A stretch of 9,066 nucleotides of DNA, taken from contig NZ_CAMLGT010000157.1 of NCBI RefSeq assembly GCF_946479605.1, positions 1 to 9,066 on the forward strand, read 5' to 3'. Both the position numbers and the translations under genes were made by a program. Shown here in pieces: positions 1 to 9,066 of this stretch. The stretch's first letter is position 1; each line of letters opens with the position of its first letter. This DNA is from an uncultured Lacibacter sp. (GTDB lineage Bacteria; Bacteroidota; Bacteroidia; Chitinophagales; Chitinophagaceae). The notes beneath the pieces are model-generated. The model had not been told where the DNA came from. It ran no database searches and was given only the letters and a program-made list of their open reading frames with translations.

Positions 1-271
1 AGGCAGTTACGATCTCAGTTCCGGTAATTTTTCCGACAGGTTTCGTGTATTCAGTATTATCTGGGAAGAAGATAAAGTTCGCTGGTTTGTTGATGATGTG
101 TTGTATTTCACATTTACAAAAGCAGATGTTGGTGCAGCCAATTATCCGTTTAATGCACCACAGTTTTTAATTTTTAATGTAGCTGTTGGTGGTAACTGGC
201 CCGGCCCTCCCGATGCGTCAACTGTTTTTCCTCAACGGATGTATGTGGATTATGTGCGTGTGTTTCAGTAA
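1..271 (+). CDS. GH16 beta-glucanase (laminarinase type), C-terminal fragment
   Basis: Only the last 89 codons are present, read from base 2 to a TAA at 269-271; the gene begins left of the window. The translation contains a WEEDKVRWFVDD strand and then NVAVGGNWPGPPD, STVFPQRMYVDYVRVFQ, which is the characteristic end of the GH16 jelly-roll fold in bacterial endo-beta-1,3-glucanases and lichenases. The catalytic ExDxxE motif lies upstream and cannot be checked. The protein stops right at the end of the GH16 domain, so it has no C-terminal carbohydrate-binding module and no type IX secretion tail. GH16 members of this type hydrolyse internal beta-1,3 (or mixed 1,3/1,4) glucan bonds outside the cytoplasm. 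The next gene starts 30 bases later on the same strand, too close for an obvious separate promoter, so it is probably the first visible gene of the operon. The family call is firm; exact substrate is inferred. Confidence 0.93.
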   Translation, partial: GSYDLSSGNFSDRFRVFSIIWEEDKVRWFVDDVLYFTFTKADVGAANYPFNAPQFLIFNVAVGGNWPGPPDASTVFPQRMYVDYVRVFQ

Positions 272-301
272 TCAATTTTCTTGATCGTTATCAGTTCTCT
301 C

Positions 302-1741
302 ATGAAAAAAATAATTTATCTGGCCTCGGTTTTGTTCCTGATGGGTAATGGTTGTGCAAAAAAATCGTCGCCAACCGGCGGAAGCACACCCCCTCCTGTA
401 ACCCCTGGTAAAAGTGATGTGGAATATTGGATCACAAAAGGCGATCAATCGGCATTGCTGCAAAAGCAAACTGCCACCTTGAATTTTGTGAACACTGTAA
501 ATGGTTATCCTGAAATAGAAGTGATACCTGAAACCACTTATCAGACTGTTGATGGTTTTGGTTATACACTCACGGGTGGCAGTGCCACACTCATCAATAA
601 ACTTTCGGCAACGGAAAAAGATGCATTGCTGCAGGAGTTGTTTGGAAAAACAGAAAACAATATTGCTGTCAGTTATTTGCGCATCAGTATTGGCGCTTCC
701 GATCTTAGTGCATCTGTTTTCAGTTACAACGATCTTCCTGCAGGACAAACGGATGTTGATCTTACAAATTTTTCTTTATCGCAGGATACAGTTGATCTTA
801 TTCCGGTGTTAAAGAAAATACTCGCCATCAATCCTGATATTAAGATCATGGGCTCACCATGGAGTGCACCGGTTTGGATGAAGAGCAATGGCAGCAGTAT
901 TGGTGGTTATCTTTTACCACAGTATTATTCAACGTATGCTGCCTACTTTGTAAAGTACATCCAGGCCATGCAAATGAAAGGAATTACGATTGATGCAGTA
1001 ACCTTACAGAACGAACCGCAGCATGGCGGTAATAATCCAAGCATGGTGATGTCTGCAGCAGAACAGGCAACGTTTGTAAAAACAAGTCTTGGTCCTGCAT
1101 TCCAGGCAGCAGGTATTAAAACAAAGATCATTGTATGGGATCACAATTGCGATAACCCCGGTTATCCTATTGCAGTGTTGAATGATGCTGCTGCAAAAGC
1201 ATACATTGATGGTTCTGCATTTCATTTATATGGTGGCGATATCAGTGCACTCAGCACTGTTAAGACAGCACATCCTGATAAAAATTTATACTTCACCGAA
1301 CAATGGACAGGTAAGAACGGAAGTTTTGATGGAGACTTAAGATGGCATGTAAAGAATGTGATCATCGGTTCCATGCGCAACTGGAGCAAAGTAGCATTGG
1401 AATGGAATCTTGCAAACGATCCTAACTACGGGCCACATACACCCGGTGGTTGTACGGAATGTAAAGGTGCGCTGACAATTGGCTCCAGTGTTATATCTCG
1501 TAACGTTGGTTATTATATTGTTGCTCATGCGTCAAAGTTTGTGCCCCCTGGTTCTGTTCGCATCAGCAGCAGTATTGCAGGTAATATCCATAGTGCAGCT
1601 TTCCGCACAGCTGCCGGAAAAAAGGTATTGATTGCGGTAAACGATGGTGCAACTGCTGTCAACTTCAATATTAAATACAACGGAAAAGTTGCTGCCACTT
1701 CCTTACCCGGAGGAGCTGTGGCAACATATCAATGGGATTAA
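302..1741 (+). CDS. GH30 family beta-glycosidase lipoprotein (first of two)
   Basis: A 479-residue secreted glycosidase. The ATG at 302 gives MKKIIYLASVLFLMGNGC, a lipoprotein signal with Cys18 as the likely acylated residue. The -3 residue is Gly rather than the usual Leu, but the Cys is followed by AKKSS and a Pro/Thr/Gly-rich linker (about 20-38). An in-frame TTG at 281 would only add seven residues before the signal. The TIM barrel runs from about 75 to 400: GSPWSAPVWMK (184-194), acid/base Glu238 in LQNEP, and nucleophile Glu333 in FTEQW. The C-terminal beta domain (about 405-479) has KVLIAVNDG, typical of GH30. A CxxC pair, Cys384 and Cys387, sits in the late barrel loop GGCTECKG. GH30 enzymes are retaining; bacterial members in beta-glucan loci are often beta-1,6-glucanases or beta-glucosidases. 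It differs enough from the next gene in its active-site loops to suggest different specificity. The exact subfamily is not determined. Confidence 0.93.
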   Translation: MKKIIYLASVLFLMGNGCAKKSSPTGGSTPPPVTPGKSDVEYWITKGDQSALLQKQTATLNFVNTVNGYPEIEVIPETTYQTVDGFGYTLTGGSATLINKLSATEKDALLQELFGKTENNIAVSYLRISIGASDLSASVFSYNDLPAGQTDVDLTNFSLSQDTVDLIPVLKKILAINPDIKIMGSPWSAPVWMKSNGSSIGGYLLPQYYSTYAAYFVKYIQAMQMKGITIDAVTLQNEPQHGGNNPSMVMSAAEQATFVKTSLGPAFQAAGIKTKIIVWDHNCDNPGYPIAVLNDAAAKAYIDGSAFHLYGGDISALSTVKTAHPDKNLYFTEQWTGKNGSFDGDLRWHVKNVIIGSMRNWSKVALEWNLANDPNYGPHTPGGCTECKGALTIGSSVISRNVGYYIVAHASKFVPPGSVRISSSIAGNIHSAAFRTAAGKKVLIAVNDGATAVNFNIKYNGKVAATSLPGGAVATYQWD

Positions 1742-1755
1742 ATAATTCAAACAAT

Positions 1756-3219
1756 ATGAAAAGAATATTATACGGATTAACTGTATTGCAACTGGTGGCC
1801 TGTACAGCCAAACAAAATTCGGCTTCTGACAATGCTGCTTCCTATTCAACTGATGGAAAGAAAGTAACAGTGTACACCACTGCCGATAGTTCCAGCTACC
1901 GGTTATCTTTAACCGATACACTGGAGTTTGTTGAAAAGGGTCAGCCTTTTGAAAACGAGATCATAGTATTTGTTGATCCCGGAAAAAGTTTTCAAAGTTT
2001 TTTAGGTGTAGGTGCTGCCATAACAGATGCATCAGCAGAAGTGTTTGCCAAATTACCAGAGGCGGCACAGCAGGAATTTTTAACGGCACATTTCGATAAG
2101 CAAAATGGAATTGGGTACACTGTTGCAAGAACAAATATCAATAGTTGCGACTTCAGCAGCGACATGTACACGTATGTGGCTGATGGTGATAAAGAATTGA
2201 AAACATTTAACATCGATCATGACCGGAAATTTAAATTACCCCTGATCAAAGCTGCAATGAAAGCTGCAGGCGGATCACTGAATTTATTTGCTAGTCCCTG
2301 GAGCCCACCAGCCTGGATGAAAGATAACAACAACATGTTGCAGGGTGGTAAGTTGAAGCCGGAGTATTATGATGCATGGGCAATGTATTACACAAAATTC
2401 ATCAAGGAGTACGAAAAAGAAAATGTGCCGGTGTGGGGTATCTCAATACAGAACGAACCTATGGCGAAGCAACGTTGGGAAAGCTGCATTTATACTGCAG
2501 AGGAAGAACGTGATTTCCTGAAAAATCATTTAGGTCCAACGATGCATAAAGAAGGATTGCAGGATAAAAAGATCATTGTATGGGATCATAACCGTGATCT
2601 TATTTACCAGCGTGCTCAAACTTATTTTAATGATCCGGAAGCTTCAAAATATATCTGGGGTATAGGATTTCATTGGTATGAAGACTGGAGTGGCGGACAA
2701 CCGATGTATGATAATTTGAGAAGAGTGTATGAATCGTTTCCTGATAAGCATATCTTTTTTACTGAAGGATGTGCTGAAAGTTTTGACTCTACACGTTACA
2801 ACGCATGGGTATTGGGCGAAGAATATGGCCGTAGTATGATCAATGACTTCAACAATGGTATGACAGGCTTTACTGACTGGAATATTTTACTGGATGAAAC
2901 CGGTGGACCAAACCATGTTCAGAATTTTTGTTTTGCTCCTGTGCATGCTGATACAAGAACCGGAAAACTGATCTATACAAATGCATATTACTACATAGGT
3001 CATTTCTCAAAATTCATTCAGCCCGGTGCAAAACGCATCAGTGCAGCTGCCAGCAGAAGCCAGTTGTTAACAACGGCATTTCAAAATACAGATGGCAGTG
3101 TGGCTGTGGTGGTTATGAACCAAAGCAGCAAGCCAACAGACTTTATGCTCTGGATCAACGGAAAGGCAGCTAACACAAAAGCATTACCTCATTCAATCAA
3201 TACCTATCTTATCAAATAA
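1756..3219 (+). CDS. GH30 family beta-glycosidase lipoprotein (second of two)
   Basis: A 487-residue lipoprotein. The start at 1756 is chosen over an in-frame ATG at 1732, which lies inside the preceding gene, because it gives a normal signal, MKRILYGLTVLQLVAC, with a good LVAC lipobox (Cys16). Catalytic barrel about 75-410: ASPWSPPAWMKDN (179-191), acid/base Glu234 in IQNEP, a WESCIYTAEEE loop (241-251), IIVWDHNRD (273-281), and nucleophile Glu337 in FFTEGC. The C-terminal beta domain (about 425-487) includes VAVVVMNQSS. The WESC.YT and WDHNRD segments are those of glucosylceramidase-like GH30 enzymes; bacterial relatives in glucan loci commonly release glucose or gentio-oligosaccharides from beta-1,6 bonds. 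It starts 14 bases after the previous stop, so the two are probably cotranscribed. The two GH30 proteins align through the whole barrel but the first lacks the WESC loop. Beta-1,6 activity is an inference. Confidence 0.94.
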   Translation: MKRILYGLTVLQLVACTAKQNSASDNAASYSTDGKKVTVYTTADSSSYRLSLTDTLEFVEKGQPFENEIIVFVDPGKSFQSFLGVGAAITDASAEVFAKLPEAAQQEFLTAHFDKQNGIGYTVARTNINSCDFSSDMYTYVADGDKELKTFNIDHDRKFKLPLIKAAMKAAGGSLNLFASPWSPPAWMKDNNNMLQGGKLKPEYYDAWAMYYTKFIKEYEKENVPVWGISIQNEPMAKQRWESCIYTAEEERDFLKNHLGPTMHKEGLQDKKIIVWDHNRDLIYQRAQTYFNDPEASKYIWGIGFHWYEDWSGGQPMYDNLRRVYESFPDKHIFFTEGCAESFDSTRYNAWVLGEEYGRSMINDFNNGMTGFTDWNILLDETGGPNHVQNFCFAPVHADTRTGKLIYTNAYYYIGHFSKFIQPGAKRISAAASRSQLLTTAFQNTDGSVAVVVMNQSSKPTDFMLWINGKAANTKALPHSINTYLIK

Positions 3220-3247
3220 ATGAATGATTTTTGCTGTAAACAGATAC

Positions 3248-4918
3248 ATGTATCGGACAATTACTTTTTTGTTGATCCTGTTTGCCGCAGGTTTCTATGC
3301 TTGTAAAAAGAAATCAGCTCCTGTAGTTGAGCAGCCAAAGACGGTTACGTTACAGTCTTTAAAGTTAAATGGAGTTGATTTTGCAAATAATTTAGTATAT
3401 GGTGCGCCACTGCAACCGGTTTTGCGGTTGCAGTTTTCGCAACCTTTGCAACGCAGCAGTATAGCCGCATCTGTAAAGATGCTTACTGCATCAGGCAGCG
3501 AAGTAAGCATCAATACGAGTTTTCAGAACAATGATTCCGTATTGGTAGTTCAACCTGCTGCTTCGCTTACAGCGATTGCACGTTACCAGTTTGTTGTGAC
3601 ATCAGGACTAAGATCTGCATCCAACGGCAACTACATTGGCTCAGTAGACAAAACTTTTATCACACAAATTGACTCTTCCAGAAAATTTCCGGCAATTACT
3701 GATGATGAATTGCTGACAAAAGTGCAACAGCAAACCTTTAAGTATTTCTGGGACTTTGCTCATCCTGTGAGCGGGCTTGCAAGAGAACGTAATACATCGG
3801 GCGACCTTGTTACATCAGGCGGATCAGGTTTTGGTGCAATGGCAATTGTTACAGGCATCCACCGCAGTTTTATTACAAGAGCACAAGGGTTACAGCGTAT
3901 GCAAACCATTGTTGATTTTCTAAAAACAAAAGCGCAAAAATTTCATGGTGCATTTCCGCACTGGCTCAATGGAAATTCAGGAAATGTAATTGCTTTCAGT
4001 GCAAAAGATGATGGTGCTGATCTGGTAGAAACTTCTTTGTTGATGATGGGACTGATCACAGCCCGGCAATATTTTAACGGCGTTGATGCCGCAGAAACAA
4101 ATTTGCGAAACGATATTACGGCTTTGTACAATGCAGTAGAATGGAGTTGGTTCAGGAAAAATAATGAGCAGGTATTGTACTGGCACTGGAGCCCGAATTT
4201 TGCCTGGGATATGAATTTGCAGATAAGAGGCTGGAACGAATGTTTGATTACTTATGTTCTTGCTGCAGCATCATCAACACATGGCATTCCAAAAACTGTG
4301 TATGATAATGGATGGGCAAGAAATGGTGCTGCAGGTTTTGTAAACGGAAATCAGTATTTCAATATGACTCTGCCGCTGGGAAGCGCTTATGGCGGGCCGT
4401 TATTCTTTTCGCATTACTCCTTTATGGGTATTGATCCAAACGGGTTAAGTGATGCGTATGCAAATTACGAAGTGCAGACAAAAAATCATTCACGCATCAA
4501 TTATCAATATTGTGTTGCAAATCCCAATGGTCATTACGGCTACAGCGATTCGTTGTGGGGACTTACGGCAAGTGATATCCCCAATGGTTACACGGCGAGT
4601 TCGCCCAACAATGATGTGAGTGTTATAGCTCCAACAGCAGCACTTTCATCAATGCCTTACACTCCAACGGAAAGTATGAAGGCTCTGAAGTTTTTTTACT
4701 ATGTGCTGGGTGATAAACTGTTTAAAGAGTATGGTTTTGTTGATGCGTTTTCGCTGAAGCAAACCTGGTTTGCCAGCTCGTTTCTTGCAATTGATCAGGG
4801 ACCGATCATTGCAATGATCGAAAATCACCGCAGTAAGTTGTTGTGGAATTTATTTATGAGTGCACCGGAGGTGAAAAGCGGATTAACCACGCTGGGATTT
4901 TCTTCGCCTCATTTGTAA
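3248..4918 (+). CDS. GH144-type (glycoamylase-like) beta-1,2-glucanase lipoprotein with Ig-like N-terminal domain
   Basis: A 556-residue protein if started at ATG 3248, giving MYRTITFLLILFAAGFYAC with Cys19 as likely lipid site, then KKKSAP. An in-frame ATG at 3224, four bases after the upstream stop, would add eight residues; I prefer 3248 because it leaves an ordinary signal length. Residues about 33-140 look like a bacterial Ig-like domain (Big_5 type: LKLNGVDFANNL, LRLQFSQPLQ, then VDKTFIT). Residues about 150-550 match the glycoamylase-like (alpha/alpha)6 family now called GH144: DDELLTKVQQQTFKYFWD (152-169), AKDDGADLVETS (252-263), RGWNE (327-331), GLTASD (438-443) and DQGPIIAMIENHR (516-528). 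GH144 founders, including one from Chitinophaga, are endo-beta-1,2-glucanases; a relative in Parabacteroides is exo-acting and releases sophorose. The downstream GH3 gene fits a role in clearing sophoro-oligosaccharides. Family call strong; endo versus exo mode is not resolved. Confidence 0.92.
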   Translation: MYRTITFLLILFAAGFYACKKKSAPVVEQPKTVTLQSLKLNGVDFANNLVYGAPLQPVLRLQFSQPLQRSSIAASVKMLTASGSEVSINTSFQNNDSVLVVQPAASLTAIARYQFVVTSGLRSASNGNYIGSVDKTFITQIDSSRKFPAITDDELLTKVQQQTFKYFWDFAHPVSGLARERNTSGDLVTSGGSGFGAMAIVTGIHRSFITRAQGLQRMQTIVDFLKTKAQKFHGAFPHWLNGNSGNVIAFSAKDDGADLVETSLLMMGLITARQYFNGVDAAETNLRNDITALYNAVEWSWFRKNNEQVLYWHWSPNFAWDMNLQIRGWNECLITYVLAAASSTHGIPKTVYDNGWARNGAAGFVNGNQYFNMTLPLGSAYGGPLFFSHYSFMGIDPNGLSDAYANYEVQTKNHSRINYQYCVANPNGHYGYSDSLWGLTASDIPNGYTASSPNNDVSVIAPTAALSSMPYTPTESMKALKFFYYVLGDKLFKEYGFVDAFSLKQTWFASSFLAIDQGPIIAMIENHRSKLLWNLFMSAPEVKSGLTTLGFSSPHL

Positions 4919-4919
4919 A

Positions 4920-4964
4920 AGCAGACAAAGATTCTAGCAAATGAATTCACTTACTTTGTGTGCT
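4920..4964. repeat. Imperfect inverted repeat in the gap before the SGNH gene
   Basis: AGCAGACAAAG (4920-4930) and CTTTGTGTGCT (4954-4964) are reverse complements at 10 of 11 positions and are separated by 23 bases. The spacer itself holds an 8-base palindrome, TGAATTCA (4942-4949). The repeat begins two bases after the GH144 stop. The right arm is not followed by a T tract, so it is not a standard intrinsic terminator. It could be a transcript hairpin that tunes 3' stability or partial termination, or a binding site for a dimeric regulator. A weak -7-like motif, TTACTTTG (4951-4958, one mismatch to the Bacteroidota TAnnTTTG), overlaps the right arm, but no matching TTTG was seen at the usual upstream distance. 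The repeat is seen directly; a function is not shown. Confidence 0.45.
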
Positions 4965-5000
4965 GTCTAATGCCCGGTATTAACAGATAAAGTTGTAGAA

Positions 5001-5666
5001 ATGAAAAGATTCACGCTCAGTATTGCTTTAACGTTCATTGTTCTTGCAGCAAATGCGCAAAACAAAGAGCCGTTTCCTTTTTGGAACGAAGTACAGAAAT
5101 TTAAAACGGCCGATAGTATTGCTTTCCCTGCGTCCAACCAGATTTTATTGATCGGCAGTTCTTCATTCACCTTGTGGAAAGATGTACAAACCTATTTCCC
5201 CGACCGGAAAATATTGAACCGTGCATTTGGCGGCAGTACACTGACCGATGTGATTCGTTACCGTTACGATGTTATTTTTCCTTATCAGCCTAAGCAAATC
5301 GTTATCTATTGCGGTGAAAATGATTTTGCATCAAGCGATACTGTAACTGTGGAGTTGGTAACACAACGGTTTATTGCATTGTTTAACTACATCCGTGCAA
5401 AATATAAAAATGTTCCGGTGGTTTATGTGTCAATGAAGCCAAGCCCAAGCCGTATGCATTTACTGGAAAAATATAAGGAAGGTAACAAACGTATCCACGC
5501 TTATCTTGCAACACGACCAAACACAAGATTTGTGGATGTGTACAACGCAATGCTTACTTCAACTGGTGAGCCGATGCCGGATATTTTTTTGAAAGATAAC
5601 CTGCACATGAATGCAAAGGGCTATGCTATCTGGAAAACGAAATTGGAAAAAGTATTACTCAAATAA
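5001..5666 (+). CDS. Secreted SGNH/GDSL-family hydrolase (possible carbohydrate esterase)
   Basis: A 221-residue protein with a type I signal peptide, MKRFTLSIALTFIVLAANA, probably cleaved after Ala19 and leaving a Gln N-terminus. It is therefore likely periplasmic or extracellular and not lipid-anchored. The SGNH blocks are in order: block I LLIGSSSFTLW (49-59), with Ser54 as likely nucleophile and a GSSS in place of the usual GDS; block II Gly77/78 in NRAFGGS; block III GEND (105-108) with Asn107; block V DNLHMN (199-204) with Asp199 and His202 as the rest of the triad. The length is typical for a single-domain GDSL lipase/acylhydrolase (PF13472 type). Lying between a GH144 and a GH3 gene, it may remove acyl esters (for example acetyl or succinyl) from the glucan, but this is inference; acyl substrate cannot be read from sequence. 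It follows an 82-base gap and ends immediately before the GH3 gene. Confidence 0.9.
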   Translation: MKRFTLSIALTFIVLAANAQNKEPFPFWNEVQKFKTADSIAFPASNQILLIGSSSFTLWKDVQTYFPDRKILNRAFGGSTLTDVIRYRYDVIFPYQPKQIVIYCGENDFASSDTVTVELVTQRFIALFNYIRAKYKNVPVVYVSMKPSPSRMHLLEKYKEGNKRIHAYLATRPNTRFVDVYNAMLTSTGEPMPDIFLKDNLHMNAKGYAIWKTKLEKVLLK

Positions 5667-5678
5667 TAAATGTTGGTT

Positions 5679-7967
5679 ATGAAAGTTTTAAAAGGATTAC
5701 TTATTGGTTTGTTTGTTTTGGTTGCGCTGCAGTTGCAAGCCCAGCAAACAAAAGAGGCAAAGATGAAAACCTTCATTGATGCATTAATGAAGAAGATGAC
5801 GTTAGATGAAAAAATCGGGCAGTTGAATTTACCTGGCTCTGGCGATATTGTAACAGGCCAGGCAGGAAATTCTGATATAGGTAAAAAGATCAAAGAAGGA
5901 AAAGTGGGCGGGCTTTTTAATATTAAATCTGTTGCTAAAATTAAAGCAGTACAAAAAGTAGCAGTAGAAGAAACACGCCTGAAGATTCCGCTCATTTTTG
6001 GGATGGATGTGATTCATGGCTATCAAACAGTGTTTCCTATTCCATTGGGTTTAAGTGCAAGCTGGGATATGCAGCTCATTGAACAAAGTGCACGCATTGC
6101 TGCTGTTGAAGCAAGTGCCGATGGCATTAACTGGACGTTTTCACCAATGGTAGACCTTACACGTGATCCACGTTGGGGCCGTGTATCAGAAGGTAGTGGT
6201 GAAGATCCTTATCTCGGAGGACAAATTGCAAAAGCAATGGTGCGTGGTTACCAGGGAAAAGATCTTTCGCTCAATAACACCATCATGAGTTGCGTAAAAC
6301 ATTTTGCATTGTATGGTGCTGCAGAAGCTGGTCGTGATTATAACACAACTGATATGAGCCGTTACCGTATGTACAATGAATATTTTTATCCATACCAGGC
6401 TGCAGTTGATGCCGGAGTAGGAAGTGTAATGGCATCGTTCAACGAAATTGACGGTATTCCGGCAACAGCCAACAAATGGTTATTAACGGATGTGTTGCGT
6501 AAGCAATGGGGCTTTAAAGGTTTTCTTGTTACTGATTACACCGGTATTAATGAAATGATCGATCATGGTCTCGGCAATCTGCAAACAGTTTCAGGCAGGG
6601 CATTGAATGCAGGCATTGATATGGATATGGTGGGCGAAGGATTTTTATCAACGCTTAAACAATCGTTGAAGGAAGGCAAAGTAACAATTCAGATGATTGA
6701 TGCAGCATGCAGAAGAATCCTTGAAGCAAAATACAAACTTGGTTTGTTTGATGATCCGTATCGCTATTGCGATGAAGAAAGAGCAAAAACAGAAGTGTTT
6801 AGTTTGGAGCATCGCAAAATTGCACGTTCAACAGCTGCGCAAAGTTTTGTATTGCTCAAGAATGAAAACAATGTATTGCCATTGAAGAAGAATGGAACCG
6901 TTGCTGTGATAGGACCATTGGCAAATGATAAACGTAATATGCCGGGTACGTGGAGTGTGGCTGCAGAATTTGATAAAGCCACAGCTGTATTAACAGGTTT
7001 AAATGAAGTGGTGGGCGATAAAGTAAAATTCCTGTACGCAAAAGGCAGTAACCTCGATTATGATGAGAAGTTTGAAGAGCGTGCAACTGTATTTGGCAAA
7101 AGTATGGGACGGGATAAACGTTCGCCGGAAGAAATGATCAGCGAAGCTGTTGCTATTGCTAACCAAAGTGATGTTGTGTTGGCTGTGCTTGGCGAAAGTG
7201 CAGAAATGAGCGGTGAAGCATCGAGCCGGACAAACATTGAAATACCACAGGCACAGAAAGACTTATTAAAGGCATTATTAAAAACAGGCAAGCCTGTTGT
7301 GCTGGTATTGTTTACAGGTCGTCCATTGGCATTAACATGGGAGCATCAGAACGTTCCTGCAATTTTGAACGTATGGTTTGGTGGCAGTGAAGCTGGTTAT
7401 GCCGTGGCAGATGTATTGTTTGGTGATGTAAACCCTTCAGGAAAAATAACAATGACCTTTCCGCAGAATGTAGGACAGGTTCCATTGTTCTACAATCATA
7501 AAAATACCGGACGTCCTTTACCCGATGGCCAGTGGTTCCAGAAATTCCGTAGTAATTATTTAGATGTAAGTAATGATCCGTTGTATCCGTTTGGTTACGG
7601 ATTGAGTTATACAAAATTCAGTTACAGCGATGTAAAAATCAGTAATGCTTCGCCAAAAGGAAACCAAACCATTACAGCAAGTGTTACACTTACTAATACA
7701 GGTACTGTTACCGGTAAAGAAGTCGTGCAGTTATATATACGTGATGTGGTTGGTTCCGTTACCCGCCCGGTTAAAGAGTTGAAAGGTTTCCAGAAAGTAG
7801 AATTGAAAGCAGGAGAAAGTAAAACAGTAACATTCAATATTTCGCCAAGTGATCTGAAGTTTTATAACTACGATCTTAAGTATGATTGGGAGGCTGGTGA
7901 ATTCCAGGTAATGATTGGTGGCAATTCACGTGATGTGAAGATGGCAAAGCTCAACTGGAGTAAGTAG
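5679..7967 (+). CDS. bglX: GH3 beta-glucosidase, BglX-like
   Basis: A 762-residue enzyme if started at ATG 5679 (MKVLKGLLIGLFVLVALQLQA, cleavage probably after Ala21). An in-frame ATG at 5670, three bases after the SGNH stop, would add MLV. Domain order: TIM barrel about 38-355 with KHF (207-209), ASFNEIDGIPA (252-262) and nucleophile Asp286 in GFLVTDY; alpha/beta sandwich about 385-590 with probable acid/base Glu513 in SGEASSRT; fibronectin-III-like domain about 640-755 with YPFGYGLSYT at its start and RPVKELKGF. Length and motif spacing closely follow E. coli BglX (765 residues). It should act in the periplasm, removing glucose from the non-reducing end of beta-gluco-oligosaccharides. A GH3 neighbour of GH144 in Bacteroides is a beta-1,2-glucosidase, so sophorose-type substrates are plausible; beta-1,3 and beta-1,6 substrates are also possible. 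Two tandem TAG stops end the gene, followed by a terminator. Confidence 0.96.
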   Translation: MKVLKGLLIGLFVLVALQLQAQQTKEAKMKTFIDALMKKMTLDEKIGQLNLPGSGDIVTGQAGNSDIGKKIKEGKVGGLFNIKSVAKIKAVQKVAVEETRLKIPLIFGMDVIHGYQTVFPIPLGLSASWDMQLIEQSARIAAVEASADGINWTFSPMVDLTRDPRWGRVSEGSGEDPYLGGQIAKAMVRGYQGKDLSLNNTIMSCVKHFALYGAAEAGRDYNTTDMSRYRMYNEYFYPYQAAVDAGVGSVMASFNEIDGIPATANKWLLTDVLRKQWGFKGFLVTDYTGINEMIDHGLGNLQTVSGRALNAGIDMDMVGEGFLSTLKQSLKEGKVTIQMIDAACRRILEAKYKLGLFDDPYRYCDEERAKTEVFSLEHRKIARSTAAQSFVLLKNENNVLPLKKNGTVAVIGPLANDKRNMPGTWSVAAEFDKATAVLTGLNEVVGDKVKFLYAKGSNLDYDEKFEERATVFGKSMGRDKRSPEEMISEAVAIANQSDVVLAVLGESAEMSGEASSRTNIEIPQAQKDLLKALLKTGKPVVLVLFTGRPLALTWEHQNVPAILNVWFGGSEAGYAVADVLFGDVNPSGKITMTFPQNVGQVPLFYNHKNTGRPLPDGQWFQKFRSNYLDVSNDPLYPFGYGLSYTKFSYSDVKISNASPKGNQTITASVTLTNTGTVTGKEVVQLYIRDVVGSVTRPVKELKGFQKVELKAGESKTVTFNISPSDLKFYNYDLKYDWEAGEFQVMIGGNSRDVKMAKLNWSK

Positions 7968-7981
7968 TAGATCCTCTACAG

Positions 7982-8017
7982 AAAAATGCCGGGCATGTAG
8001 TCCGGCATTTTTGTTTT
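7982..8017 (+). terminator. Strong intrinsic terminator after the GH3 gene
   Basis: AAAAATGCCGG (7982-7992) pairs perfectly with CCGGCATTTTT (8002-8012) across a 9-base loop, and the right arm runs into TTTTTGTTTT. The stem is 11 bp with a GC core and lies 15 bases after the GH3 stop. The A tract on the left means it could also stop transcription coming from the right. It marks the end of the glucan operon and separates it from the sensor gene. Confidence 0.88.
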
Positions 8018-8111: not shown

Positions 8112-8261
8112 ATGAAGTTCGCAAATACAATGCGTGGTTTACGCAGTATTCAATTCTTCCACAAACAAATATTTTCCCTGTTATCCCGGCTTCATGCTGT
8201 GCCTGCTGTTGCGGATGAATATTCTTATTTGTTCATCTCAAACTGCAAGAAAGTATTGTGA
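8112..8261 (+). CDS. Possible small ORF overlapping the sensor start (49 residues, uncertain)
   Basis: An ATG at 8112 opens a 49-codon frame that ends with TGA at 8259-8261; a second in-frame ATG is at 8130. The product is basic (several Arg, Lys and His) with no recognisable domain, signal or membrane segment. I do not recognise it. Its interest is positional: the stop overlaps the GTG start of the sensor gene in a GTGA arrangement, the classic layout for translational coupling, and it sits in the otherwise gene-free 240-base leader. The frame also stays open upstream to a TTG at 8055. It may be a coupled leader peptide, but an ORF of this length can occur by chance. The same interval has a TGCGT-GGTTT-ACGCA hairpin (8131-8145) and a 9-base direct repeat, TATTCAATT, at 8086-8094 and 8147-8155. 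Confidence 0.25.
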   Translation: MKFANTMRGLRSIQFFHKQIFSLLSRLHAVPAVADEYSYLFISNCKKVL

Positions 8262-9066
8262 AGAAATCAACCTTCATAAAATTAAACATTCCGGTTAGCC
8301 GCACTATACTGTTGATATTTATTTTAGCAGCAGGTGTGCTTGTGTTTTTTGGCCGTATTATTTACGTGGGCTCTGTGCAAACAAAGCAAACCGATGAGAT
8401 GGTGATGCATACTTACCGGGTAATGGAGCAGGTTGATAATATCCGCATAGGCGTATCGGAAAGCGAAGGTTTGGTGAGAAGTTACCTGATAACGGGTGAA
8501 GATCACCTCCTGAATGAATTACAAAAAGTTCATCTTAGTATCCAGTATGCTGCTGCCACTGCACATCAAATGGCAATAGACTCCACACAAAAAGCATGGC
8601 TTGGTCAACTAGGATCAACGCTGAAGCAGAGTAGAACAGATCAACAGACTTTTCTTGCTTATCAAAAGCCAATTGCACAGGCAAAAGATCTTGATGCAAA
8701 GGGAAGAGAACTTTCTCAAAAGATCAATGATCAGTTATCGTCTATACGTGAGCGTCAGCAAATGCTGTTACAGCAACGTACGAAAGTAAGTGAACAAACA
8801 GAACAGCGATTGATCAAAATTACTGTAGCAGGTGCTTTCATTGTCATTCTTTTTATTGCAGTGTTGCTGTGGCAACTTGATAAAGACATTCGCCTCCGGA
8901 AAAGAGCTGAACAGGAAATACGGGAAAGTGAAGTGAAATACCGGAAACTAATTGAAGGTCCAGGAATTATCACGTTTACTGCCAACCTGCAGGGCGAGTT
9001 TGAATTCATTAGTGCAAAAGCAAAAAGTCTTACCGGTTATTCGCCACTTGAGTTACAAGGGAAATC
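8258..9066 (+). CDS. CHASE3-PAS membrane sensor, probably a histidine kinase (N-terminal part)
   Basis: An open frame from GTG 8258 runs to the right edge (269 complete codons). An in-frame TGA at 8216 and the absence of any ATG, GTG or TTG between it and 8258 support this start. Two membrane helices, about 17-37 and 188-205, flank a periplasmic segment of about 150 residues. That segment carries the CHASE3 signature EGLVRSYLITGED (70-82, in place of the common RGYLLTGDE) and is largely alpha-helical and Gln-rich. After the second helix come a short charged helix (RLRKRAEQEIRESE, 212-225) and a PAS domain starting at KYRKLIEGPG (227-236) with SLTGYSPLELQGKS at the end of the window. This order is usual for sensor histidine kinases in Bacteroidota, but the kinase domain lies outside the window, so a cyclase or other output is not excluded. 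It is separated from the glucan genes by the terminator, and a regulatory link to them is not shown. Confidence 0.88.
   Translation, partial: MKKSTFIKLNIPVSRTILLIFILAAGVLVFFGRIIYVGSVQTKQTDEMVMHTYRVMEQVDNIRIGVSESEGLVRSYLITGEDHLLNELQKVHLSIQYAAATAHQMAIDSTQKAWLGQLGSTLKQSRTDQQTFLAYQKPIAQAKDLDAKGRELSQKINDQLSSIRERQQMLLQQRTKVSEQTEQRLIKITVAGAFIVILFIAVLLWQLDKDIRLRKRAEQEIRESEVKYRKLIEGPGIITFTANLQGEFEFISAKAKSLTGYSPLELQGK

What the first reader, a model, noticed from the sequence alone, without database searches (positions are those of the whole stretch)
1..7967. Beta-1,3/1,6-type and beta-1,2-type glucanases in one apparent operon
GH16, two GH30, GH144, SGNH and BglX-like GH3 genes lie head to tail with short gaps and one terminator at the end. 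GH16 and GH30 point to beta-1,3 and beta-1,6 bonds, while GH144 is known for beta-1,2-glucan. Loci for laminarin or pustulan and loci for beta-1,2-glucan are usually described separately. The combination may mark a system for a glucan carrying several linkages, or a pathway in which GH144 relatives have a specificity not yet described.
Basis: partly seen in the sequence, partly recalled or inferred. Interest (0 to 1): 0.7.

Follow-up and report, generated by a model that had tools for sequence, protein, structure and literature searches.

The report
Beta-1,2/1,6-glucan locus in Chitinophagaceae
This stretch of DNA from an uncultured bacterium carries a recurring set of sugar-cutting genes, and the steady pairing of a beta-1,2-cutting enzyme with beta-1,6-type enzymes suggests, but does not show, that the target is the branched glucan that other bacteria keep in their cell envelope.

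Summary
GH16 (last 89 residues only), GH30_3-like, GH30_1-like, GH144, SGNH and BglX-like GH3 genes lie head to tail, with gaps of 3-82 bases and a strong terminator. It is not a one-off. Among 80 related genome loci plus the window, 30 have the exact order GH30a-GH30b-GH144. The window's GH30_1 belongs to a clade of 38, all with GH144 within 15 kb. When 41 copies without a seen GH144 were added, 3 joined that clade, all at contig ends, and 38 did not. The GH144 keeps every tested catalytic and clan residue of the beta-1,2-glucanase CpSGL, so an undescribed GH144 specificity is not needed. My preferred mechanism is a locus for bacterial osmoregulated periplasmic glucans, whose groups together contain beta-1,2, beta-1,6 and beta-1,3 bonds. 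That step is inference (0.37). A supporting link to phosphate-removing genes (17/39 versus 2/42) did not recur in a second sample (2/14 versus 1/15). GH16-GH30a-GH30b also occurs without GH144 (L238), so fungal-type glucan plus separate beta-1,2-glucan is an equal rival. New variant of a known kind.

The parts
2..271 (+). 3' end of a GH16 gene (89 aa), laminarinase-like
   Evidence: Pfam PF00722 E 4e-10; best PDB relatives 4dfs (GH16) and 3azx (laminarinase), E about 2e-25; catalytic half outside the window
302..1741 (+). GH30a: GH30_3-like endo-beta-1,6-glucanase candidate with a lipoprotein-type signal (by eye)
   Evidence: NCBIfam BT3312 model 391.8 bits, below its cut-off of 700; best PDB 5ngk, E 4.9e-84 (that 5ngk is BT3312 is recalled, and all 13 numbered residues checked fit); D131, W179, N237, E238, N244, H281, N282, E339, W377, C393, C396 kept, D286 and W345 not
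1756..3219 (+). GH30b: GH30_1-like beta-glucosidase candidate with a lipoprotein-type signal (by eye)
   Evidence: Pfam GH30 261.4 bits; best PDB 2wnw (SrfJ, name recalled) and human glucosylceramidase 1ogs; in the 38-row GH144-linked clade, support 100/97
3224..4918 (+). GH144 with N-terminal Big_5 domain: beta-1,2-glucanase candidate, lipoprotein-type signal (by eye)
   Evidence: PF10091 232.2 bits and PF13205; PDB 4gl3, 5gzk/5gzh CpSGL; catalytic and clan residues kept
5001..5666 (+). SGNH/GDSL esterase candidate with signal peptide (by eye)
   Evidence: PF13472 55.8 bits; PDB 3p94 and others; GSS, GEND and DNLH motifs read by eye
5670..7967 (+). BglX-like GH3 beta-glucosidase with signal peptide (by eye)
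   Evidence: NCBIfam BglX 958.3 bits, above its cut-off of 666; PDB 3u48 JMB19063; also 5xxl, recalled to be BT_3567
7982..8012 (+). intrinsic terminator-like hairpin with T tail
   Evidence: 13-pair stem, 6 G-C, T tail

Best explanation
The window is the 3' part of a polysaccharide-utilisation locus of a Chitinophagaceae bacterium close to Lacibacter. It takes apart glucans that carry beta-1,2 together with beta-1,6 (and beta-1,3) bonds. Most likely the target is osmoregulated periplasmic glucan (OPG) released by other bacteria: group 1 has a beta-1,2 backbone with beta-1,6 branches, groups 2 and 3 are cyclic beta-1,2, group 4 is cyclic beta-1,3/beta-1,6. Proposed steps, all inferred from family and gene order: the lipoprotein GH144 cuts the beta-1,2 chain; GH30b (GH30_1) removes beta-1,6 glucosyl branches; GH30a (GH30_3) and GH16 cut beta-1,6 and beta-1,3 runs as in group 4; the SGNH enzyme removes acyl (such as succinyl) substituents; the periplasmic GH3 finishes the oligosaccharides to glucose. 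Shown: gene content, order, kept catalytic residues, long-term co-inheritance of GH30_1 with GH144. Inferred: the substrate, the division of labour and the operon.
For: Order GH30a-GH30b-GH144 in 30 of 81 loci, 35 if one gene may intervene. GH30_1 tree of 68 rows: 38 of 38 members of the window's clade (100/97) have GH144 within 15 kb; the label needs 4 changes against 18.8 in shuffles, 0 of 500 as low. Adding 41 copies without a seen GH144 (7, 34): FastTree keeps the clade (0.984, 41 of 109 rows); the 3 newcomers in it, L210, L211 and L216, lie at contig ends, and 38 fall outside. Linkage within 25 kb 19/26 (identity 66% or more) versus 5/40 (lower) in 147 family genomes drawn without regard to GH144. 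All six CpSGL residues kept in the window; in 181 rows (178 from loci) one Y330F is the only change. GH30a keeps most of the BT3312 active site. OPG linkages and substituents: passages of PMC10514313 and PMC3818809. SGNH in 17/39 GH30-bearing versus 7/42 other loci; phosphate enzymes, among them an EEP like a mannosyl-6-phosphatase, in 17/39 versus 2/42.
Against: The phosphate-enzyme link did not recur in 29 new loci: 2/14 (one a near copy of L010) versus 1/15; within FG-GAP loci over 12 kb it is 17/31 versus 1/6, p = 0.18. EEP also stands in GH30 loci without GH144 (L150, L152; L240). The window itself shows no phosphate enzyme. BT3312 does not cut gentiobiose and needs a -2 subsite (PMC5481569 passages), so single-glucose branches would not suit GH30a unless its changed -2 region alters this. 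GH30_1 beta-1,6 activity was not shown by any search. GH30_3/GH30_1/GH16 sets also exist without GH144 (L148, L150, L156, L158; L238, L240, L243, L249), and L238 has the window's own order GH16-GH30a-GH30b, as expected for a fungal or algal glucan set.
Confidence: 0.37

Rival explanations
1. Fungal or oomycete wall locus with an add-on. GH16, GH30_3, GH30_1 and GH3 degrade beta-1,3/1,6-glucan of fungi; GH144 serves a separate beta-1,2-glucan that is met in the same habitat (rhizosphere, biofilm), so one regulon handles two polymers.
For: GH30_3/GH30_1/GH16 sets with SusC/SusD and without GH144 occur in L148, L150, L156, L158 (L148 shows no GH3) and in L238 and L240. L238 has GH16-GH30a-GH30b in the window's order. 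BT3312 serves fungal beta-1,6-glucan (PMC5481569). The GH16 end is laminarinase-like.
Against: The window's GH30_1 belongs to a lineage seen only with GH144 or at contig ends, separate from the GH30_1 of those GH144-free loci. GH16 is in only 4 of 39 GH30-bearing GH144 loci, the window included.
Confidence: 0.37
2. An undescribed glucan, for example a beta-1,3-glucan with beta-1,2 side chains (as in some bacterial exopolysaccharides, recalled) plus beta-1,6 bonds, is the single target.
For: The window is unusual among GH144 loci in placing GH16 directly before GH30a; 31 of 39 GH30-bearing loci carry an FG-GAP/ASPIC protein, often at that place.
Against: A GH144 cleft binds a run of beta-1,2 bonds (Sop7 in XcSGL, PMC12102758 passages), not single side chains. 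No call points to such a polymer.
Confidence: 0.12
3. GH144 of this locus has a new, non-beta-1,2 specificity.
For: It is a paralogue of the CpSGL type: longer, with a Big_5 domain; the 86 copies of 530 aa or more average 53.7% identity to CpSGL against 58.6% for the 92 shorter ones.
Against: All six tested catalytic or clan residues are kept in the window and, but for one Y330F, across 181 rows; a long and a short GH144 stand together in 38 of 42 loci without GH30.
Confidence: 0.05

Closest known systems
PULs with syntenic GH30_1 and GH30_3 genes (Lapebie et al. 2019, PMC6499787, passages read)
   Same: GH30_3 and GH30_1 genes with high synteny across Bacteroidetes; the same paper lists GH144 PULs as abundant.
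   Different: The passages treat GH30_1/GH30_3 and GH144 PULs apart and call the significance of the synteny unclear; here GH144 follows directly.
B. thetaiotaomicron beta-1,6-glucan PUL BT3309-BT3314 (PMC5481569, passages)
   Same: GH30_3 and GH3 enzymes; GH30a keeps most of the BT3312 active site.
   Different: The passages name just two enzymes there, GH30_3 and GH3.
GH144 beta-1,2-glucan loci (CpSGL; fosmid PULs with SusC/SusD, GH3 and a GH16 or a GH144, PMC6550366 passages)
   Same: GH144 with a GH3, here with an intact catalytic set.
   Different: Addition of the GH30 pair and, in this window, of GH16; that study speaks of either a GH16 or a GH144.
GH144-free loci with GH16-GH30a-GH30b, such as L238
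   Same: Same order of the first three genes, with SusC/SusD upstream.
   Different: No GH144; their GH30_1 falls outside the window's clade.
Lacibacter luteus and L. cauensis loci L003 and L002
   Same: GH30a-GH30b-GH144, later SGNH and GH3; L003 also has the downstream sensor gene.
   Different: Both carry a second GH144, DoxX and GH43 (L002 more genes still) between GH144 and SGNH, and an FG-GAP/ASPIC gene instead of GH16 before GH30a.

Membership tests
GH144 beta-1,2-glucanase | PF10091 domain and similarity to CpSGL | tested here: met
   232.2 bits; 53.4% identity to CpSGL over the aligned stretch
GH144 beta-1,2-glucanase | E211 (acid), E142, D139, D135 and clan residues F268, Y330 | tested here: met
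   roles from PMC12102758 passages
GH144 beta-1,2-glucanase | hydrolysis of beta-1,2-glucan | not testable with these tools
   needs assay
GH30_3 endo-beta-1,6-glucanase | catalytic E238/E339 and N244, D131, C393-C396 of BT3312 | tested here: met
GH30_3 endo-beta-1,6-glucanase | -2 subsite Trp345 | tested here: not met
   replaced in all 48 of 49 GH30a copies that cover the site, the window included (one is truncated); a W or Y stands two residues after E339
GH30_3 endo-beta-1,6-glucanase | NCBIfam BT3312 equivalog cut-off (700 bits) | tested here: not met
   391.8 bits: same kind, not the same equivalog
GH30_1 beta-glucosidase | closest to GBA1/SrfJ and catalytic glutamates aligned | tested here: met
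   alignments (NEP motif and FTEG against FSEG/FASE); GBA1 as GH30_1 representative from PMC5481569
GH30_1 beta-glucosidase | beta-1,6 bond specificity | not testable with these tools
   needs assay
GH16 beta-1,3-glucanase | catalytic EXDXXE motif (recalled) | not testable with these tools
   outside the window; only the last 89 residues are present
Bacteroidota polysaccharide-utilisation locus | SusC/SusD pair | tested here: inconclusive
   none in the window; SusC or SusD in 27 of 39 GH30-bearing loci, window included, several of them short
OPG-utilisation locus (proposed) | enzymes for phosphoglycerol/phosphoethanolamine and acyl substituents | tested here: inconclusive
   SGNH present; phosphate enzymes 17/39 vs 2/42 in the first sample, 2/14 vs 1/15 in the second

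The most novel reading that the evidence does not exclude
Chitinophagaceae and relatives carry a dedicated locus type for eating the periplasmic glucans of other bacteria, in which a specialised GH30_1 lineage debranches beta-1,6-substituted beta-1,2-glucan for GH144; this would be a utilisation system for branched OPG of a kind I found no report of, and would explain part of the unexplained GH30_1/GH30_3 synteny.
Probability: 0.31. Interest if true: 0.75.

Novelty: new variant of a known kind. Interest (0 to 1): 0.5.

Why it matters
Periplasmic glucans are made by many Gram-negative bacteria, yet I found no paper on how other bacteria feed on them: searches for 'osmoregulated periplasmic glucan' with 'polysaccharide utilization', and for 'periplasmic glucan' with Bacteroidetes, glycoside hydrolase and degradation, returned none. 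The library is open-access only, and spellings such as 'osmo-regulated' escape the first search. A GH30_1 lineage tied to GH144 gives a concrete, assayable candidate for debranching such glucans, and a possible reason for the GH30_1/GH30_3 synteny that was called unclear in 2019 (PMC6499787).

Tried and rejected
A new GH144 specificity was set aside because the catalytic set is intact. The hope that GH30a of GH144 loci would differ in its active site from GH30a of GH144-free loci failed: the scored positions do not separate the two, and in the GH30a tree the window hangs from an unresolved fork among mostly GH144-linked copies. The phosphate-enzyme argument was tested twice and held only the first time. 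Gene labels come from BLAST clusters: the label GH43 also covers DoxX genes, because one ORF of L010 fuses both; the PhoD gene of L002 was not counted as a phosphate enzyme. The 80 loci are the best 80 of 293 relatives, so they lean to close kin; several are short, which lowers counts. In one search GH144 matches beyond the listed ones would only raise the linkage. Rows dropped: GH30 proteins under 300 aa or 350 aa and hits at 45% identity or less; ten loci (L170, L176-L178, L180, L185-L188, L199) that repeat earlier ones and L189 (2.9 kb) were left out of the replicate. L149, with both GH30 genes, GH144 and no phosphate enzyme, is in neither sample; with it the second count would be 2/15. One of the 41 added GH30_1 copies, L212, joined the clade in the smaller tree but not in the larger; its contig ends 6 kb upstream. 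They strengthened the clade but also showed L238 and L240, so I lowered the leading odds from 0.40 to 0.37, raised the fungal rival from 0.33 to 0.37 and lowered the novel case from 0.33 to 0.31. The search for homologous proteins, structure prediction, fold search and RNA-family search were not run.
Full report
What is there. The window holds seven genes on the + strand. By Pfam and NCBIfam they are the end of a GH16 gene, two GH30 genes, a GH144 gene with an N-terminal Big_5 domain, an SGNH esterase, a BglX-type GH3 and, after a strong terminator at 7982-8012, a CHASE3/PAS sensor gene that runs off the window. Gaps between the first six genes are 30, 14, 4, 82 and 3 bases. G+C is even across the genes, 0.396-0.428, so composition gives no hint of a junction of foreign pieces. 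No whole genome is held for the window. Among the fetched loci the nearest DNA is a contig of the Chitinophagaceae MAG SCNH_8 (L001, 92.9% over 6.2 kb), then the Lacibacter genomes.

What each enzyme looks like. GH30a is nearest 5ngk among solved structures. That 5ngk is BT3312 is recalled, but all 13 residues numbered in the BT3312 paper fall where expected. GH30a keeps both catalytic glutamates, N244, D131 and the C393-C396 pair, but not W345 of the -2 subsite or D286. The W345 loss is shared by all 48 of 49 GH30a copies that cover the site, with or without GH144 nearby. It falls below the NCBIfam equivalog cut-off (391.8 against 700 bits). GH30b is nearest 2wnw (SrfJ, recalled) and human glucosylceramidase. 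GH144 is 53.4% identical to CpSGL and keeps D135, D139, E142, E211, F268 and Y330 (roles from passages of PMC12102758). The GH16 end resembles laminarinases. GH3 is nearest JMB19063, and 5xxl is also close (that 5xxl is BT_3567 is recalled). PMC12369401 passages say BT_3567 and Lin1840 hydrolyse the beta-1,2 and beta-1,3 disaccharides at comparable speed. GH30a, GH30b and GH144 start with lipoprotein-type signals and SGNH and GH3 with cleavable signals (read by eye).

How often the set recurs. A scan of genome contigs with GH144 gave 293 relatives, of which the best 80 were kept. With the window that makes 81 loci. The strict order GH30a-GH30b-GH144 is in 30 of 81, and in 35 if one gene may intervene; 36 have both GH30 genes and 39 at least one. 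A typical larger locus reads SusC, SusD, LamG protein, FG-GAP/ASPIC protein, GH30a, GH30b, one to three GH144, then a varying choice of GMC, Gfo/Idh/MocA, EEP, DoxX, GH43, SGNH and GH3. Of the 42 loci without GH30, among them those of Dyadobacter, Pedobacter and Mucilaginibacter, 34 have SusD, LamG and at least two GH144, and 27 have GH43 or GH3.

Is the link real, or just crowding of sugar genes? Two draws were made without regard to GH144. In 148 genomes across the phylum, 33 have a GH30b relative. Thirty regions around such relatives, not all of them, were fetched; one (L149) has GH144 close by, besides L003 and L026 already in hand. The GH144-free ones include beta-1,3/1,6-type sets such as SusC-SusD-GH30a-GH3-GH16-GH30b (L156, L158). 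In 147 genomes of the Lacibacter family, 63 have a GH30b and 89 a GH144 match. GH30b copies at 66% identity or more have GH144 within 25 kb in 19 of 26 cases, those below in 5 of 40, Fisher p = 8e-7, not corrected for kinship. A tree of 68 GH30b proteins puts the window in a clade of 38 with support 100/97, all 38 with GH144 within 15 kb; a neighbouring group of 12 is mainly GH144-free, 10 of 12. Many of those rows had been chosen by GH144 or by linkage. So the copies without a seen GH144 in the family draw were added too: 7 close ones and 34 more distant ones; the remaining one, G132, was already in the tree as L141. In the enlarged tree of 109 the clade keeps FastTree support 0.984 and gains only L210, L211 and L216, all at contig ends. 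A fourth, L212, whose contig ends 6 kb upstream, joined it in a smaller tree (support 0.49) but not in this one. So no placed clade member with an intact neighbourhood lacks GH144.

Mechanism. A GH30_1 lineage that is always beside a beta-1,2-glucanase suggests one substrate with beta-1,2 bonds plus the bond that GH30 cuts, most likely beta-1,6. [quoted passage not shown] E. coli OPG bears phosphoglycerol, phosphoethanolamine and succinyl groups (PMC3818809 passages). The window's enzyme families therefore match the beta bonds of all four groups, and SGNH would fit the acyl groups. This is inference.

Results against it. Phosphate-removing genes (EEP, type I phosphodiesterase, PAP2) are in 17 of 39 GH30-bearing and 2 of 42 other loci, but in 2 of 14 and 1 of 15 new loci. 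EEP, whose relatives in the PDB include a mannosyl-6-phosphatase, also occurs in GH144-free GH30 loci (L150, L152; L240). BT3312 does not cut gentiobiose (PMC5481569 passages), so GH30a may not act on single-glucose branches. The proposed debrancher is therefore GH30b, whose bond preference no call shows. The window shows no phosphate enzyme and no SusC/SusD. L238, a SusC/SusD locus without GH144, has GH16-GH30a-GH30b in the window's order, so the front of the window could be an ordinary beta-1,3/1,6 set.

What is special to this window. Relative to Lacibacter luteus (L003) it lacks the second GH144, DoxX and GH43 genes between GH144 and SGNH, and has GH16 where L003 has the FG-GAP/ASPIC gene. 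GH16 is otherwise in L019, L061 and L079 of the first sample (4 of 39 GH30-bearing loci with the window) and in L183 and L204 of the second.

What is known. Lapebie et al. 2019 reported strong synteny of GH30_1 and GH30_3 PULs of unclear significance and many GH144 PULs (PMC6499787 passages). A fosmid study found SusC/SusD-GH3 sets with GH16 or GH144 (PMC6550366 passages). Fourteen papers in the library hold both GH144 and GH30. I read passages of four of these, and none of the passages describes this locus; of the other ten I saw only the listing. Two searches on periplasmic glucans with utilisation or Bacteroidetes degradation returned none; a looser one listed 15 papers, none on uptake of OPG by title or abstract opening. 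The library is open-access only, so this is no proof of absence.

Verdict. The combination is a recurrent locus type rather than an oddity, so it is a new variant of a known kind. The most useful lead is the GH144-bound GH30_1 lineage and the OPG hypothesis, which can be assayed directly.

Noticed in passing
L003 3676-6975; cluster of 38 loci: A protein of about 1100 aa with FG-GAP repeats and an ASPIC/UnbV domain sits directly before GH30a or GH144 in many loci; its role in glucan use is unknown.
   Followed up: partly
L002, L010, L019, L030, L018, L026 and others: GMC oxidoreductase, Gfo/Idh/MocA, DoxX, PhyH, SDR, multihaem-cytochrome-like and DUF1501/DUF1553 genes recur beside GH144; this recalls oxidative (3-keto) sugar routes.
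   Followed up: no
window 8258-9064; L003 18621-21617: A CHASE3/PAS sensor gene after the terminator is kept next to GH3 in L003 (83% identity), a possible but untested regulator.
   Followed up: no
L150, L152 and L240: Loci without a seen GH144 combine GH30b with an EEP phosphatase-like gene and GH3, so phosphate enzymes go with GH30_1 in more than one context.
   Followed up: partly
window 4919-5000: The 82-base gap between GH144 and SGNH is where Lacibacter luteus has a second GH144, DoxX and GH43; a gene loss here or a gain there.
   Followed up: partly
L016, L032, L075, L080, L078: A SASA-type esterase of about 650 aa recurs (one member scanned), four of five times in GH30-bearing loci, which hints at acylated substrate.
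   Followed up: no
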